A stretch of DNA of 64,000 nt from an uncultured bacterium (GTDB lineage Bacteria > Cyanobacteriota > Vampirovibrionia > Gastranaerophilales > Gastranaerophilaceae): contig CASFXY010000013.1 of assembly GCA_949298805.1 (NCBI GenBank), positions 1-64,000 of the forward strand, given 5' to 3'. This document shows positions 664 through 55,153 of the stretch, in pieces. Numbering within the stretch: the stretch's first letter is position 1; every line of letters begins with the position of its first letter. A program made the translations under genes and the position numbers. Below the pieces are notes generated by a model. The model was not told the origin of the DNA, ran no database searches, and saw only the letters and a program-made list of their open reading frames with translations.

Positions 664-2172
664 ATGATAAATAAAATTTCAAGTGTTTCCGCTTTAAATA
701 ATGCAACAAAGTCTAATTTTTCTTTTAACGTTAAACAAAATACTTCAGTACCAAATGCTAAAAATATTGAGCTTGCACAGCTTCCTTTGGGTAATATTTA
801 TGGCGCAAAAATTAATTTTTCAGGCAGGAAAAGAAAAGCCGATGTGCAAAAAACTCCTGCACAAGAACTTTACTTGAAGGCTGCAAATAAAACAAAAACA
901 AGTGTTGATAATTGGACTCTTGAAAATTTGTACTATGGTGTTAATCATCCCGAAAAAAGATGGATATGCGGAGTTGACCCGAAAGAACTTTTAAACAGAT
1001 CTCTTGAAAATGCAATAAATTCAATAATGACTCTCCAATACGGTGAAAATATGCCGGATAAAATCCCTTCTGATATAAAAACTCCAAATTACGGTGATAA
1101 TTGGGGCAGGCATGCAAATTATATAGAAATTAATAATCGCGCACTTGGTGAAATGCATGGCGATAGGACAACAGGTTCAATTTTAGGTGCAATTAAATTA
1201 CTCCCCATGATACCCCCTTCGCATGATAAGTGGGCTAATTGCCTTTTGATATCACAGCTTTACCCTAATATCTGGGGGGATGGTTGGAATAATAACGGAG
1301 AAAATTCTCTCTATGGTATCAAACTTGAATTTGAACGCGCCTCAGATAATATAGGGTGGATAAAAATAGGAGATAAGGTATTTACTCCGGAAGAACAAGT
1401 TAAGGCTTTTAATGATTTTGCTCATCTTCGCGGTTTTAAAACGTCTTTTAGAATGTTGATATCTGAAGATCAATTGAAACTTGGTGATTCTGGTCAATTC
1501 AGATGGAATAACCCTGAACATGTTGAAGCTTTTATTATAGCATGTTGCAAAGGGATTGAACTTGGATTTGACGGTATTTTCTTTGACTCGCTAAAACATG
1601 TCGGCGGGTACGACTGGGGACATTATGCCGGTGTGGGTGCGGTTCCAAGTTATGACCAAATGGCATATATTTTAGCTGAAGTAAGAAGGCGTACTGGCAG
1701 AAACGATATAAGTTTCTCGGGTGAAAAAGCAGAAGGCGATTCTATGCGCTATAAAAATATGGGTGTTACAGCAGGTGCAAGCCAAATGAGAGCAAATGAT
1801 GTTAACGAAGTTAAAAACAGTGCGCATTCTCAAGCTTGGTGTCAGGATTTTGCATGGGGGCCTGTTGTGTCAGATGATAATGATGAAGGCTTGATTTGTT
1901 ATAATGACAGATTAAATAAAATTAACTCGTCACTTTTCGGATATGATAATGTAGGTGAAAAATTGCCCTCTTTTATGCAGATGCATGATTTGTTCCCTTT
2001 GAATTACAATACAAATACACATGATTTAATGATTCAAAACAGGAGTTTTTCAACCGATGGAACACCAAGCAGCCATTATGATAATCTTTTCGCTACAGGT
2101 GCAATCGAGAGAACATACAGAAAACGTGTAGGTGAAAAATTTGCTTGGGCGTACAATCATAGTTCCGATTAA
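664..2172 (+). CDS. Alpha-amylase-like (GH13-type) TIM-barrel protein with N-terminal tail
   Basis: A 502-residue protein with no close relative that I recognise by name. Its core reads like an alpha-amylase-family barrel. GFDGIFFDSLKH (Asp308) matches the beta-4 nucleophile strand, SGEKAEGD (Glu354) the beta-5 acid/base, and NTNTHD (Asp454) the beta-7 transition-state stabiliser. The segment FNDFAHLRGFKTSFR resembles the region around the usual beta-2/beta-3 strands. Before the barrel lies a tail of about 60 residues rich in Asn, Ser and Lys that ends in INFSGRK (residues 50-56). It is not a Sec signal peptide. The ATG at 664 follows the ribosome binding site AGGAG. A glycan-degrading or transferring role is inference. 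The tail is shared with two other proteins in the window. Confidence 0.7.
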   Translation: MINKISSVSALNNATKSNFSFNVKQNTSVPNAKNIELAQLPLGNIYGAKINFSGRKRKADVQKTPAQELYLKAANKTKTSVDNWTLENLYYGVNHPEKRWICGVDPKELLNRSLENAINSIMTLQYGENMPDKIPSDIKTPNYGDNWGRHANYIEINNRALGEMHGDRTTGSILGAIKLLPMIPPSHDKWANCLLISQLYPNIWGDGWNNNGENSLYGIKLEFERASDNIGWIKIGDKVFTPEEQVKAFNDFAHLRGFKTSFRMLISEDQLKLGDSGQFRWNNPEHVEAFIIACCKGIELGFDGIFFDSLKHVGGYDWGHYAGVGAVPSYDQMAYILAEVRRRTGRNDISFSGEKAEGDSMRYKNMGVTAGASQMRANDVNEVKNSAHSQAWCQDFAWGPVVSDDNDEGLICYNDRLNKINSSLFGYDNVGEKLPSFMQMHDLFPLNYNTNTHDLMIQNRSFSTDGTPSSHYDNLFATGAIERTYRKRVGEKFAWAYNHSSD

Positions 2173-6805: not shown

Positions 6806-8896
6806 ATGGCACAACCCAATACACAATCTAATCCTATAAGTGAAATTTTTCTTGCAATATTTGTAATCGTTTTGATTTTAATATTGCTTATAGAAATGCC
6901 TAATTGGGTTATAAATTTTTCAATAAGCTTAAATATAACCCTTGGTATTGTGCTGTTAATGATTTCCTTATATGTGCAAAAACCTCTTGAGCTTGCTTCT
7001 TTTCCATCTATTATATTGATTGGTACAATGTTTCGACTTGTTTTATCTATTGCCTCAACCCGTCTTATTCTTGCAAAGGGCGATGCCGGAGAAGTAATTC
7101 ATGCCTTTGGCACATTTGTAACAGGTGGAAATATGGTAGTAGGCGGAGTCATATTTCTTATTATTACCGTTGTCCAGTTTATGGTAATTACAAAAGGTGC
7201 GGAACGTATAGCAGAAGTTGCCGCACGTTTTGCATTGGATGCCATGCCCGGTAAACAGATGACAATTGATGCCGATTTTAACGCAGGTTTAATTTCGCCA
7301 GAAGAAGCAGTAAGGCGTCGGGAAGATTTACAAAGAGAATCATCCTTGTTTGGTTCAATGGATGGTGCTATGAAGTTTGTAAAAGGTGACACAATTGCAG
7401 GTATTATCATTACGGTTATAAATATAGTAGGCGGTTTAATTATAGGTATATTAATGAATGGCATGCCTGTTGCAGATGCAGTTTCGAAATATACTATTTT
7501 AACAATAGGTGATGGTCTTGCAGCTCAAGTACCTTCACTTTTAATGGCAATATCCGCCGGTATTATAATGACACGCTCAACTGCAACGGGCTCATCTTTG
7601 GGTATAGATTTATCAAGTCAGATTTTATCAAAACCACAAAGTTTGTTCTTTGCTTGCGGATTTTTATTACTTATTGCAATAACAAGCCCTGTTACGGGGT
7701 TGCCATGGTTGCCATTTGTCTTGTTTACAATTATTCTTGCGCTTGCTGGATTTTCTGTTCTTGTTAATGCGGATGTTCAAGCTCAACTTGGACAGTTGGA
7801 TGCGGTTAAACAAAACATGCAAGATTTAGTTAATCCTAATAAAATGTATGAAAGGCTTGGGGTTGATGTTTTAAGCTTACAAGTAGGCTCAGGGCTTTTA
7901 ATTATTGCGGACCCCGACCAAGACGGTCAACTTTTGGCAAAAATTGCTGCATTAAGACAAAGGGTAACGGATGAATTAGGTTATATTATTCCAAATATAA
8001 GGATTATGGATTCTTCTGCCATTGCGGATAATGAATACTTAATCTCAATACGTTCCAATACGGTTGCAACAGGCATGGTTTACCCTGGTAAATACATGGT
8101 GATTGCCGATCAGTGGGAAGCACTTGGCAAAAAATTGCCAAACAATGCAATTGTAAGTGTTGACCCTACATATCAATCCCAGGCTTATTGGCTTGACCCG
8201 CAATTTATCGATAAAAAAGATAATATTACAGCAGTTGATTCGGTTGATGTAATTGTTACGCATTTGCAGGATTGTGTTCGTAAGTATGTAGATGAAGTTA
8301 TGACAAAAACCGATGTTTTAAAACTTATGGAACTTGTAAAATCACAAGACCCAACACTTGTTAATGACCTTGTGCCGACAATTATTTCAACCAGTGATTT
8401 AAGAAAGATTTTTGTTAACTTAATTCGCGAGAAAGTTTCAATTAAAGATATTATCTTTATTTTTGAAAGATTGTGTGATTATGCAAGATTTTCAAAAGAA
8501 CCTGATATTCTATCCGAAAGATTACGTGCGGCTTTGGGTCGTCAAATATGCTTGGCGCACTGCAATAAAGAAAAAGTTTTATACGCATTGACACTTTCAA
8601 GCGAATGGGAAAAAACCCTTGATGATAGTTGCCAAAGGACCGAATTAGGTACAATGTTTTTGCTTAATCCCATGCAAGTGCAAGAGCTTATTGAAACAAC
8701 CGCAAATACCCTTATGCGTGCTCATCAAGCAGTTGGCACACAGCCTGTTATTCTTTGCTCGCCAAGGATACGTTTACCTCTATATCAAATGCTTGAACGT
8801 CATATACCTACAATTGTGGTTATTTCATATTCCGAACTTATAACTGATATAAGAGTTGAAGCTATAGACACAATTGGTGAAAGTTCATACGTCTAA
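6806..8896 (+). CDS. flhA: Flagellar biosynthesis protein FlhA
   Basis: FlhA is the nonameric export-gate protein of the flagellar type III system. With 696 residues it has the normal length. There are about eight transmembrane helices in the first 330 residues, including LAIFVIVLILILLIEMP and GVIFLIITVVQFMVITKGAER. The FHIPEP signature region RRREDLQRESSLFGSMDGA followed by KFVKGD is intact. The C-terminal half is the soluble substrate-docking domain. The ATG at 6806 follows AAAGG very closely, and GGAGG lies further upstream at about 6782. The end overlaps rnhB on the other strand by 12 bases. No fliI, fliP, fliQ, fliR or flhB is present in the window. Confidence 0.96.
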   Translation: MAQPNTQSNPISEIFLAIFVIVLILILLIEMPNWVINFSISLNITLGIVLLMISLYVQKPLELASFPSIILIGTMFRLVLSIASTRLILAKGDAGEVIHAFGTFVTGGNMVVGGVIFLIITVVQFMVITKGAERIAEVAARFALDAMPGKQMTIDADFNAGLISPEEAVRRREDLQRESSLFGSMDGAMKFVKGDTIAGIIITVINIVGGLIIGILMNGMPVADAVSKYTILTIGDGLAAQVPSLLMAISAGIIMTRSTATGSSLGIDLSSQILSKPQSLFFACGFLLLIAITSPVTGLPWLPFVLFTIILALAGFSVLVNADVQAQLGQLDAVKQNMQDLVNPNKMYERLGVDVLSLQVGSGLLIIADPDQDGQLLAKIAALRQRVTDELGYIIPNIRIMDSSAIADNEYLISIRSNTVATGMVYPGKYMVIADQWEALGKKLPNNAIVSVDPTYQSQAYWLDPQFIDKKDNITAVDSVDVIVTHLQDCVRKYVDEVMTKTDVLKLMELVKSQDPTLVNDLVPTIISTSDLRKIFVNLIREKVSIKDIIFIFERLCDYARFSKEPDILSERLRAALGRQICLAHCNKEKVLYALTLSSEWEKTLDDSCQRTELGTMFLLNPMQVQELIETTANTLMRAHQAVGTQPVILCSPRIRLPLYQMLERHIPTIVVISYSELITDIRVEAIDTIGESSYV

Positions 8897-43257: not shown

Positions 43258-44217
43258 TTACTGTTTTAAGAAAATTGCTTGGGCAAGATAATTTATACTT
43301 TCTTCTAAATCTTCGGGATTTGAAGAAAAAGCAAGCATATTGCTGCAGACTTCATAATATTTGGGATTATTAGGCTCAAGTCTTATTGCTTCTTTCATAT
43401 CAGATATTGCATCTGCTTGCTCGGGGTTTACAAGTGCCCTTCTGTAAAATGCAAAAGCAGAATTGGGGTTATAATTAATTGCCATACTAAATGCTTCAAA
43501 AGCACTGTTTATTTCTTTTGAGTATTTTGAAGTTGCCATTGCTCTGTAGCATAAACCTTTTTTCAAATATGCATCGTACAATTTTGTTTTTATTTTTTGA
43601 TTGTCAGGATTTTGTGCAAGTTCTTGCTCATTGAGCTCGATGCTTATATCAAGAGCTTCTACCGCACTTTTATAATCTCCAATTGTCATGTAAACTTTGC
43701 CTTTTAGTGTTTGCAAATCAGGATTTTGCACTAATTCGTAACTGCTTGTAAAGTCATCCAATGCACTTCTTAAAAGTTTTTGCATTTCGTATTCTTCTTT
43801 ACCTTTTTTTGCTTGCGCCAGTTTTGTTTTGGCAATACCCCTCATGCGATATGCCGTTGAGTCGGCTTGTATATCCAAAGACTTATCATAGCTTGCAATT
43901 GCTTCTTCGTATTTTTTTTGTTCGCTATACATGTTGCCAACTGCAAAGTATGCTTTTGCGCTTCCCCTTACTTCAAGTGCTTTTTCAAGGTAAACAAGTC
44001 CGGTTGAATATTCTTTTTTTCTAAAAGCTTCCAGCCCTCTTTTTTCCAGTTGCTCTGCAAGCGCAATATCTTTTTTGTCTGCCTGTGATTTTTCAAAAGT
44101 ATCTTGTTGCGGACCGTCAATATTTCCTTTGAAATTCATTGCATTATTTTTTATGCTTGTATATAGTTTTGTTGTCGGTTTTACCGCGTTTGTAAAATTT
44201 GATGTAATGCTTAACAT
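43258..44217 (-). CDS. TPR protein with N-terminal FKG tag
   Basis: A 319-residue protein with about six TPR units from residue 50 (AFRKKEYSTGLVYLEKALEV, KKYEEAIASYDKSLDIQADS, NPNSAFAFYRRALVNPEQAD). There is no Sec signal. The first 45 residues are a disordered Asn/Thr-rich tail with MNFKGN at 27-32. That tail resembles those of the amylase-like protein (664) and the GT5-like protein (52349). It is divergent from ileS. Function unknown. Confidence 0.8.
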   Translation of the reverse strand: MLSITSNFTNAVKPTTKLYTSIKNNAMNFKGNIDGPQQDTFEKSQADKKDIALAEQLEKRGLEAFRKKEYSTGLVYLEKALEVRGSAKAYFAVGNMYSEQKKYEEAIASYDKSLDIQADSTAYRMRGIAKTKLAQAKKGKEEYEMQKLLRSALDDFTSSYELVQNPDLQTLKGKVYMTIGDYKSAVEALDISIELNEQELAQNPDNQKIKTKLYDAYLKKGLCYRAMATSKYSKEINSAFEAFSMAINYNPNSAFAFYRRALVNPEQADAISDMKEAIRLEPNNPKYYEVCSNMLAFSSNPEDLEESINYLAQAIFLKQ

Positions 44218-52348: not shown

Positions 52349-54736
52349 TTATTTGCTAACTTTTATTTTCATTTGGTTTAAATAATTTTGTATTGCGCCT
52401 TTGTTCCAACTCACATCCGTCTTGAGTGCATTTAAGTCCATTTTTATAGAATCTTCTTTTGAAAGCTCGATATCTTTTTCCATGGCTTGTGCCAGTTTTG
52501 TGGAATTTCTGTCTTTTCTTGCAGCTTTATCCCAGTCCGGCGAAATGCATATAAATTCGTAATCTTTAACTGTTATGGCATTTGCTTTGTCTGCACCGTA
52601 ATCATCATAGGCATAAATTTTTCTTGAAATTTCACCATCAGAGCGCATACCTCCTACCTCTGTTGCTATAACATGAGAGCCTGCATATAGTCCTTTTAAT
52701 TCTGAAATTCCATAAGGCTCAAAATCTGAGGGCATGCAATTTCTTGTTGTCATATTCATTAAGAGCAGTCCGGAATTTGAAATTCGATTTTGGGTAAATA
52801 ATATTCTTTTGCCATATTCGCCCAATTCGTCTTTTTTGGCTTTAATGTAGTTTGCAATGTTTTCATCTCCGCCGCCTGAAATTAATAAAATAGGGAATTT
52901 GCGGCTGTTAGGATTGTATTTTTTGACAAGTTTTGTATAAGCATCAATCATTGTGTCAAAGCCCTTTTGCGAATCAAGGCGACTTGCCATAGTAAATATG
53001 GGCGTATCAACACTGGCGTTTGATATATCAATTCCGGATGTACCCTCGTAAAAATTAGCAGGATTATTTTGGTGAATAAATGGTGTTTGTTGATTATTAT
53101 TTTTAACTGCATCTTGAATTAAACCGATAAAAAGCTTTTTGTTATGAGTCTTTCTGCGCGAAAATGTGCTAGGATTGATTAAACTAACATCTTCGTCGGC
53201 TTGTTCCAGATAGGGCATTATTCTTTGTTCGGTTCCGAAAATTTCGCTTAATTTGCCCCCAAGGTCCTTGTTGAGAGTTTCTATATTTTTTCTTGTTGCT
53301 GCGAGCGGTTCTTTATCAACTCCATTAGGGTAAACATTTAAAGAGCCTTTTGAATTTTTTATTCTTATTACCTCATTTAACTTTGAAGAAAGACCTTTTG
53401 TTGCAAGTTCGTCTTTGTATCCTTCAGAAACCGGACCTATGCTTGTTGCAAGTACACATGAAGCATGGGCGGGATTTAGAGCATCTTCGTAAAATCCTAT
53501 TCTTTGCGATGGTGTTCCGAAAAGTAAAAATTGTCTGTTACCAATATCTGCTATACAGCTGTTTTCCACTATATCTCTTGCAAAATCACCATAAAGAATA
53601 TTAAAGTATTCTTCTATTACTTTTTTATCCCAACTTTGTCCTTGGTATCCGTCGCCTAAATTATGAACTACAACTGATGTGTTATTGGCAAGGTTTCTTA
53701 AATAATCTGTTGTATCTTTTCTTCTTGAGTGGATTGAGTCTTCGGCTCTTGAATAAAGACGCATTTTGCATAATAGCCCACCTGATTGCCAAGCTTCATG
53801 CGCAACAAGTTTATCCGGAGCTTTTAATAATGTACCGTCAGGAAGTTTCATTTCTCCTTCTTTTGCTTGAGCCAAAAGCTCGTATGTCATATTATTAAAT
53901 TGGGCCATACGTGCTCTTTCCGGACTGTGGGTTAAGTCTTGGTAAATCATTGCTGTATCGGTATCTCCGAAATTAAACATATCATCGTCATACAAGAATA
54001 ATGTTTTTTGTTTAAAAGGGCCGAACTCACCAAAATATACACTAAATTTGTCTGTTCTGTTACCTGTTTGTATGTCCCCTTCGTATATTTTTTCAACACG
54101 TGTTTTGTTGTTTGGGGTTATGTAATAAGTATTTCCGTTTTCATCCTTTTCAATATAATTAATTTTTTTGCCTTTTACACTTATATTGAACATTGGCGAA
54201 ATTGCAAGTGTATTAACACCCGCCTGTTCAAGCGCATGAGGCATTTCGCGTGCAATGTCCGTTTGACCTCCTACAGGGTTTGTATATTCATAACTTATTG
54301 ACCAGACATCAGGATTTACTACTCTGGCAGCTTTTGTTTCTCCGTTTAAAACTTTTGCAATATCTCTTGCCATCATACCTTTTGTGCTTGCTGGGAGTTT
54401 TAAATCATCTTTCAAATCAAGATAGAGCCCACCCCAAATACTCAAAAGATTATTGGGAATTTCAACCGGTATAGGCAGATTTTTTGCGGCTTGAATTGCT
54501 TTAAACTCAAGTTTATCTAACTCGCTTGCAGGATAACCGTTTGCTGCAATGGTGCGCAATTCCTGCAGAAGTTCTCTTGCTTTATCATTAATGCTTGAAC
54601 AATATAATAAAATTGCGCTGGCAGAAGTTAAGACATTTCTTTCTTTTTGGCTTTGCACATTTTTTTGGTTTGAATTAGTTTTTTTTGCCCCAAAAGATAT
54701 ATTTGTACTATATCTGTACGGCTGAATTTTTAGCAT
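52349..54736 (-). CDS. GT5 glycogen/starch-synthase-like protein with N-terminal FGA tag
   Basis: A 795-residue protein. The glycogen-synthase-type start WSISYEYTNPVGGQTDIARE (NPVGG replaces KxGG) and the C-terminal half of the GT-B fold are clear: SRLDSQKGFDTMIDAY, LLISGGG, NCMPSDFEPYGISELKGL with the catalytic Glu region, then AGSHVIATEVGGM. It is about 300 residues longer than bacterial GlgA, the extra being inserted between residues 170 and 500. The first 30 residues are a disordered tail with NISFGAKK. ATG 54736, after GAGGG, is chosen over an in-frame start at 54763. The substrate may be a storage or exported glycan. Confidence 0.78.
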   Translation of the reverse strand: MLKIQPYRYSTNISFGAKKTNSNQKNVQSQKERNVLTSASAILLYCSSINDKARELLQELRTIAANGYPASELDKLEFKAIQAAKNLPIPVEIPNNLLSIWGGLYLDLKDDLKLPASTKGMMARDIAKVLNGETKAARVVNPDVWSISYEYTNPVGGQTDIAREMPHALEQAGVNTLAISPMFNISVKGKKINYIEKDENGNTYYITPNNKTRVEKIYEGDIQTGNRTDKFSVYFGEFGPFKQKTLFLYDDDMFNFGDTDTAMIYQDLTHSPERARMAQFNNMTYELLAQAKEGEMKLPDGTLLKAPDKLVAHEAWQSGGLLCKMRLYSRAEDSIHSRRKDTTDYLRNLANNTSVVVHNLGDGYQGQSWDKKVIEEYFNILYGDFARDIVENSCIADIGNRQFLLFGTPSQRIGFYEDALNPAHASCVLATSIGPVSEGYKDELATKGLSSKLNEVIRIKNSKGSLNVYPNGVDKEPLAATRKNIETLNKDLGGKLSEIFGTEQRIMPYLEQADEDVSLINPSTFSRRKTHNKKLFIGLIQDAVKNNNQQTPFIHQNNPANFYEGTSGIDISNASVDTPIFTMASRLDSQKGFDTMIDAYTKLVKKYNPNSRKFPILLISGGGDENIANYIKAKKDELGEYGKRILFTQNRISNSGLLLMNMTTRNCMPSDFEPYGISELKGLYAGSHVIATEVGGMRSDGEISRKIYAYDDYGADKANAITVKDYEFICISPDWDKAARKDRNSTKLAQAMEKDIELSKEDSIKMDLNALKTDVSWNKGAIQNYLNQMKIKVSK

Positions 54737-54868
54737 ATTACCCTCGTTTATATCTAACAACACTATATAAAAATACCAGAAAAAATTTTTTTGCTATTTT
54801 AATATTAAAAAATGTAAATAAGATTTTCTCTTTAGACAAACAGTGATATGTTGTTGTAATATATTATC

Positions 54869-55153
54869 ATGAGCGAAAATTTAAAAGAACTTAAAAACTC
54901 ATATCCTGATTTTAACTTTGAAAATCTTGCCAAAATTGCAAATGTTGAGGTTAGATTAACTGCGCAATTAGGTAAGACAAAAGTTCCTCTAAAGGATATC
55001 TTGCGATACGAGCAAGGTGCAATTGTTATGCTTGATAATAAAGAAGAAGAACCAGTAGATATTTTTGTAGATAATGTTCTTGTGGCGCGTGGGGTTGTTG
55101 TTGCCGTTGATAATTGTTATGGTGTTAAAATAACGGAAATTATTGAACGATAA
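54869..55153 (+). CDS. fliN: Flagellar motor switch protein FliN (SpoA domain)
   Basis: A 94-residue protein that is little more than the SpoA domain of FliN: NVEVRLTAQLGKTKVPLKDI, GAIVMLDNKEEEPVDIFVDN and VVVAVDNCYGVKITEII match the FliN signature strand order. It forms part of the C-ring that reverses or powers the motor. It is alone and 46 kb from the fliE-flhA operon. A strong hairpin terminator follows. Confidence 0.88.
   Translation: MSENLKELKNSYPDFNFENLAKIANVEVRLTAQLGKTKVPLKDILRYEQGAIVMLDNKEEEPVDIFVDNVLVARGVVVAVDNCYGVKITEIIER

What the first reader, a model, noticed from the sequence alone, without database searches (positions are those of the whole stretch)
664..829. Shared N-terminal tag [IM][NS]F[SKG][GA][RKN] on three unrelated proteins
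The amylase-like protein (INFSGRK at residues 50-56), the TPR protein at 43258-44217 (MNFKGN at 27-32) and the GT5-like protein at 52349-54736 (ISFGAK at 13-18) have unrelated folds. All three begin with a short Asn/Ser/Thr/Lys-rich, non-Sec tail that ends in the same six-residue pattern before the fold. All start M-[IL]-x-[IK]. Two of the three are carbohydrate-active. A common tail on different folds suggests a targeting, export or polymer-docking signal that, to my knowledge, has no name. The flagellar type III system also reads disordered N-termini, so an export signal is one possibility.
Basis: partly seen in the sequence, partly recalled or inferred. Interest (0 to 1): 0.78.

Follow-up and report, generated by a model that had tools for sequence, protein, structure and literature searches.

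The report
Order-wide Phe-Gly protein tag, unnamed
In an order of gut-dwelling, non-photosynthetic relatives of cyanobacteria, about 2% of proteins, of many unrelated kinds, carry the same short floppy tag built round an Asn/Ser-Phe-x-Gly motif, which points to a docking or processing signal that I found described nowhere.

Summary
All three motifs are in frame at the stated residues. Unsupervised motif discovery on 197 non-redundant polar N-termini from Gastranaerophilales recovers N-[ILV]-[SNT]-F-x-[GA] as the top motif; shuffled controls do not. In polar N-terminal segments [NS]F[KGSTNQR]G occurs 28 times against 6.0 expected. About 20 proteins in 863 kb of the host genome carry it: GH13-like, GT5-like, TPR, PARP-like, GNAT, amidohydrolase, cupin and multi-pass membrane proteins. 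Tails diverge between orthologues while the motif stays (29/30, 21/24, 19/22 and 8/11 in four families; shuffled means 1.6-3.6), with changing codons, so selection acts on protein. Four genomes hold tagged and untagged GH13 paralogues. AlphaFold leaves the tail of the GH13-like protein disordered. In six natural gene fusions the second partner's motif is kept inside the protein, twice after the N-terminal copy was lost. That argues against an N-terminal export signal and for a linear docking motif or protease site. Three genomes of the class outside the order show no excess despite having FlhA. The partner is unknown.

The parts
664..2172 (+). GH13-like (amylase/GlgE-type barrel) protein, 502 aa, carrying the tag
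   Evidence: no Pfam or NCBIfam family
664..843 (+). disordered N-terminal tail, residues 1-60, starting MINKI
   Evidence: pLDDT about 28-33 with no secondary structure; start and motif conserved while the middle varies
811..831 (+). tag core INFSGRK (residues 50-56)
43258..44217 (-). TPR protein, 319 aa, carrying the tag
44122..44139 (-). tag core MNFKGN (residues 27-32)
52349..54736 (-). starch/glycogen-synthase-like (GT5 N-part plus GT1-type C-part) protein, 795 aa, carrying the tag
54683..54700 (-). tag core ISFGAK (residues 13-18)
   Evidence: Phe kept in all nine close orthologues, but the residue two after it is G/A in only three and S/T in the rest

Best explanation
It is an order-specific short linear docking motif, N-[ILV]-[SN]-F-x-[GA], carried in a disordered, Asn/Ser/Thr/Lys-rich tail that usually also starts M-[KN]-I-x-x-I. 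Shown: the motif exists as a tag on unrelated folds, is selected at protein level, and is retained internally after gene fusion. Predicted by AlphaFold for one protein: the tail does not pack on its own domain. Inferred: a common partner in these cells binds the motif as an extended strand. The hydrophobic residues at -2 and 0 would sit on one face, and Gly/Ala at +2 would fit a tight turn. Unrelated enzymes and order-specific membrane proteins would thereby be brought to one place. Proteins without the tail, such as the untagged GH13 paralogues, would stay elsewhere. The identity and location of the partner are not known.
For: Unsupervised recovery of the motif. Enrichment in polar N-terminal segments, 28 against 6.0. 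Retention through divergent tails in four of five families tested. Several synonymous codons for Gly, both TCN and AGY for Ser, TTT and TTC for Phe. Disordered tail in the AlphaFold model. Tagged and untagged GH13 paralogues in G002, G015, G019 and G033. Six fusions of the 294- and 304-aa membrane proteins keep NNVSFTGL, KKVSFSGA, PQFKGK, KTLSFGAR, KQLSFNGK or DIKFTGG at the junction. Two of them (L274, L147) have lost the N-terminal copy, as expected if one motif per polypeptide is enough. Unrelated tagged enzymes.
Against: No partner was found, and no co-occurring receptor gene was screened for. The motif is degenerate: the P0003 family drifts to S/T at +2, and single orthologues have lost it (L199, L083). 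Internal polar segments in general show only weak enrichment, 24 against 16.3, so the N-terminal position is strongly preferred; a pure docking motif need not show that. A processing site would explain the fusions equally well.
Confidence: 0.45

Rival explanations
1. A protease processing site: one order-specific protease cuts at or near F-x-G, releasing the tail. The tail may be a targeting presequence, with the conserved M-[KN]-I start doing the targeting and NxSF-x-G being the cut site.
For: The tag is bipartite, like a presequence with a cut site. Conservation ends at +2, just before the fold. In fusions an internal site would separate the two membrane proteins, and the N-terminal copy could be lost without harm. 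One M16 peptidase-like protein has KISFGSKCLSFKGS between its two halves.
Against: No cognate protease is known. The +1 position is very variable. Several cytosolic-type enzymes have untagged paralogues that need no maturation.
Confidence: 0.25
2. An N-terminal export signal, for example read by a flagellar or injectisome type III system, exporting enzymes such as the GH13- and GT5-like proteins, as Chlamydia does with its glycogen enzymes.
For: Disordered, Ser/Asn/Ile-rich, non-Sec tails. Every order genome searched has FlhA, most have two full-length copies. Precedent: T3S signals on nearly all C. trachomatis glycogen enzymes (PMC4829429). One genome has neighbouring tagged GlgC-like and GT5-like genes.
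Against: Internal retention in fusions, with the N-terminal copy lost in two. Multi-pass membrane proteins carry the tag. Phe at or before residue 29 in 22 of 42 sequences. No excess in FlhA-bearing genomes outside the order. T3 substrates share no common peptide sequence (PMC8983047).
Confidence: 0.15
3. A post-translational modification site (lipid, glycan or other) or a degron read on the linear motif.
For: Works at internal positions; short core with one invariant Phe.
Against: No modifiable residue is invariant except Phe; the flanking N/S/T is interchangeable.
Confidence: 0.08
4. No function: low-complexity Asn-rich N-termini of AT-rich genomes produce such words by chance, or an RNA-level start signal produces them.
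For: Polar, AT-rich N-termini are common; the single 200-kb samples of relatives are not significant by themselves.
Against: Composition-preserving shuffles, retention in orthologues with changing codons, and absence of excess in an equally AT-rich class genome outside the order (G054, GC 0.34).
Confidence: 0.03

Closest known systems
Flagellar early-subunit type III signals (N-terminal hydrophobic signal plus gate recognition motif; Bryant et al. 2022, PMC8983047)
   Same: Bipartite: short hydrophobic element at the extreme N-terminus, disordered spacer, then a short motif
   Different: Tag Phe often lies before residue 30; works internally in fusions; sits on enzymes and multi-pass membrane proteins
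Chlamydial glycogen enzymes exported by type III secretion (Gehre et al. 2016, PMC4829429)
   Same: Alpha-glucan enzymes of cytosolic type carrying an N-terminal non-Sec signal
   Different: No shared sequence motif is reported there; here a shared motif on many other proteins too
Encapsulation peptides of microcompartments and cargo peptides of encapsulins (from general knowledge)
   Same: Short terminal extension on unrelated enzymes that recruits them to one structure
   Different: Those are amphipathic helices or C-terminal peptides; this tail is predicted disordered with a Phe-x-Gly core and also sits on membrane proteins
Phe-based plastid transit peptides and the ASAFAP-type motif of algae (from general knowledge)
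   Same: Disordered presequence whose key residue is a Phe, sometimes at a cut site
   Different: Eukaryotic organelle import; no relation tested, resemblance only

Membership tests
[quoted passage not shown]
   Phe at residue 29 or earlier in 22 of 42 tagged sequences; rule from PMC8983047
Flagellar early-subunit export signal | small hydrophobic signal at extreme N-terminus | tested here: met
   Ile/Val enriched about 3-fold at position 3, Ile 2.8-fold at position 6
Flagellar early-subunit export signal | hydrophobic residue four after the Phe (FxxxPhi, recalled form of the gate recognition motif) | tested here: not met
   hydrophobic at +4 in only 16 of 42
Flagellar early-subunit export signal | actual export by the system | not testable with these tools
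   needs secretion assays
Sec/Tat signal peptide | hydrophobic core near the N-terminus | tested here: not met
   tails of all three window proteins lack any hydrophobic stretch
Microcompartment encapsulation peptide | amphipathic helix in the extension | tested here: not met
   residues 1-60 of P0001 without helix and with pLDDT of about 30; only this protein was modelled
Microcompartment or encapsulin cargo peptide | shell genes in the genome | not tested
   not searched
GH13 (fold of the 664-2172 protein) | TIM-barrel fold of the amylase family | tested here: met
   Foldseek E 4e-10 to amylases and branching enzymes; VIA-align Z 23.4, rmsd 3.8, 352 residues aligned to T. maritima maltosyltransferase 1gju, and GlgE next
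GH13 (fold of the 664-2172 protein) | catalytic Asp, Glu, Asp | tested here: inconclusive
   D308, E354 and D442 are invariant in 25 relatives and lie in GH13-like contexts; assignment of roles is from general knowledge

The most novel reading that the evidence does not exclude
Gastranaerophilales possess an unnamed protein-sorting system: one receptor or processing machine reads N-[ILV]-[SN]-F-x-[GA] in disordered tails and gathers some 35-40 unrelated proteins per genome, membrane proteins included, at a common site or compartment that other bacteria lack.
Probability: 0.5. Interest if true: 0.87.

Novelty: new variant of a known kind. Interest (0 to 1): 0.74.

Why it matters
A sequence-defined tag on about 2% of a bacterial proteome, confined as far as sampled to one order of gut bacteria with little or no culture, would name a sorting or maturation route that no annotation shows. 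It would also give a handle on dozens of proteins without any known family. The fusions, and the paralogue pairs with and without the tag, are natural experiments that make the function directly testable.

Tried and rejected
Chance from composition: rejected by shuffles and by conservation. RNA-level signal: codons vary at fixed residues. Tag as part of the fold: the tail is disordered in the model of P0001. Tag as a mark of membrane proteins: 12 of 37 tagged have a membrane helix against 512 of 1511 others, no difference. A FlhA-cytoplasmic-domain-only protein, present in most order genomes and in none of the other-order class genomes listed, was considered as a receptor. In G034 it is an ordinary member of a flagellar cluster with FliJ, FliK and FlgD, so it is only a lead. 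Viral relatives of the PARP-like tagged protein: none. Literature searches for the tag gave nothing relevant.

Full report
Observation. The window lies in contig 13 of a 1.68-Mb genome. The first protein has no Pfam or NCBIfam family, the second is a TPR protein, and the third resembles glycogen/starch synthases.

Is it more than chance? I read 863 kb of the host genome plus stretches of relatives. In the first 75 residues of 812 crude host genes, [NS]F[GKSTQRN]G occurs in 19 against 8.2+-2.7 in shuffles. From 2644 genes I took 1730 non-redundant representatives, selected 197 with polar N-termini that lack a membrane segment, and ran an expectation-maximisation motif search. The top motif was N-[ILV]-[SNT]-F-[KGS]-[GA]; shuffled and internal controls gave nothing like it. 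In polar N-terminal segments the core is found 28 times against 6.0 expected. In polar internal segments it is found 24 times against 16.3. The start is also biased, M-[KN]-I-x-x-I-N, and in proteins with that start the core is 6.5-fold over shuffles. Single 200-kb samples of relatives are not significant alone; their weight lies in orthologue conservation.

Which proteins carry it? In the host sample there are about 20, which extrapolates to 35-40 per genome. They include a PARP-like protein, an amidohydrolase, a GNAT acetyltransferase, a cupin protein, several without any family, and several multi-pass membrane proteins. In relatives there are also a nucleotidyl transferase (GlgC-like), an M16 peptidase, a GNAT enzyme and a second amidohydrolase. 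Tagged proteins are not enriched in membrane helices.

Is it selected? Tails diverge in length and sequence between orthologues while the core stays. Membrane family 294 keeps [NST]F.[GA] in 29 of 30 (shuffled mean 3.6, maximum 9 in 2000 shuffles). Membrane family 304 keeps it in 21 of 24 (2.9), the GH13-like tagged branch in 19 of 22 (2.6) and the TPR family in 8 of 11 (1.6). Orthologues are related, so these are not independent counts, but some are only 22-45% identical. Gly is written with all four codons, Ser with TCN and AGY, Phe with TTT and TTC, so the protein is what is kept. The GT5-like family is weaker: Phe is kept in all nine, but G/A at +2 in only three, S/T in the others.

Paralogues. 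Genomes G002, G015, G019 and G033 each hold a tagged and an untagged GH13-like paralogue; the untagged ones start close to where the fold begins. The tag is therefore dispensable for the fold. AlphaFold agrees: residues 1-60 of P0001 have pLDDT of about 30, and the fold from residue 65 is mostly above 90. That fold is of the GH13 type.

Fusions. In the host, the 294- and 304-aa membrane proteins are adjacent genes, each with the tag. In six other genomes they are one open frame, and in all six the motif of the second partner survives inside the protein: NNVSFTGL (L262), KKVSFSGA (L264), PQFKGK (L270), KTLSFGAR (L274), KQLSFNGK (L134) and DIKFTGG (L147). In L274 and L147 the N-terminal copy is gone. 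The six are homologous and may not be independent events. A signal that needs a free N-terminus would not be expected to persist there. A linear docking motif or a protease site would.

Export. Every one of 39 order genomes has FlhA, most of them two full-length copies, so type III export is available. But the motif often lies too close to the N-terminus for the flagellar rule. It persists internally. In three class genomes outside the order that have FlhA (G040, G045, G054) the core is found in 2 proteins against 2.0 expected; G054 has the same GC content as the host. These three samples are small (241 non-membrane genes).

Reading. Best supported is a short linear motif read by one order-specific partner: docking 0.45, processing 0.25, export 0.15. 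Existence, selection at protein level and internal retention are shown; disorder is predicted for one protein; the partner and the destination are inferred. The resemblance to Chlamydia's exported glycogen enzymes (PMC4829429) and to Phe-based transit peptides is a lead only.

Noticed in passing
window 6806-8896; L244-L246 (host C20, C13, C18); G034 contig 1 at 53538-55019 (L129): Nearly every Gastranaerophilales genome has two full-length FlhA proteins and a third, about 490-aa protein with only the FlhA cytoplasmic domain; the third form was not seen in class genomes outside the order. In G034 it lies in a flagellar cluster beside FliJ, FliK and FlgD.
   Followed up: partly
L048/L040, L031/L047, L050/L042, L049/L041: Four genomes hold both a tagged and an untagged GH13-like paralogue of the window's amylase-like protein.
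   Followed up: yes
L166:12931-19941 (G028): Three neighbouring tagged genes: a GlgC-like nucleotidyl transferase, a GT5-like protein with an added membrane helix, and a 747-aa protein; looks like a tagged alpha-glucan cluster.
   Followed up: partly
host C2:708-3473(+) (L007): A 921-aa protein with the tag (ISFGSSD), then a lipoprotein-like signal (LLLTFNLSAC), then a very long Asp-Thr repeat.
   Followed up: no
L180:6967-9846 (G032): A double M16 peptidase-like protein with two copies of the motif (KISFGSKCLSFKGS) between its two halves.
   Followed up: no
L012:8505-10300 and L262, L264, L270, L274, L134, L147: An adjacent gene pair for two order-specific membrane proteins that is fused into one gene in several genera; function unknown.
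   Followed up: partly
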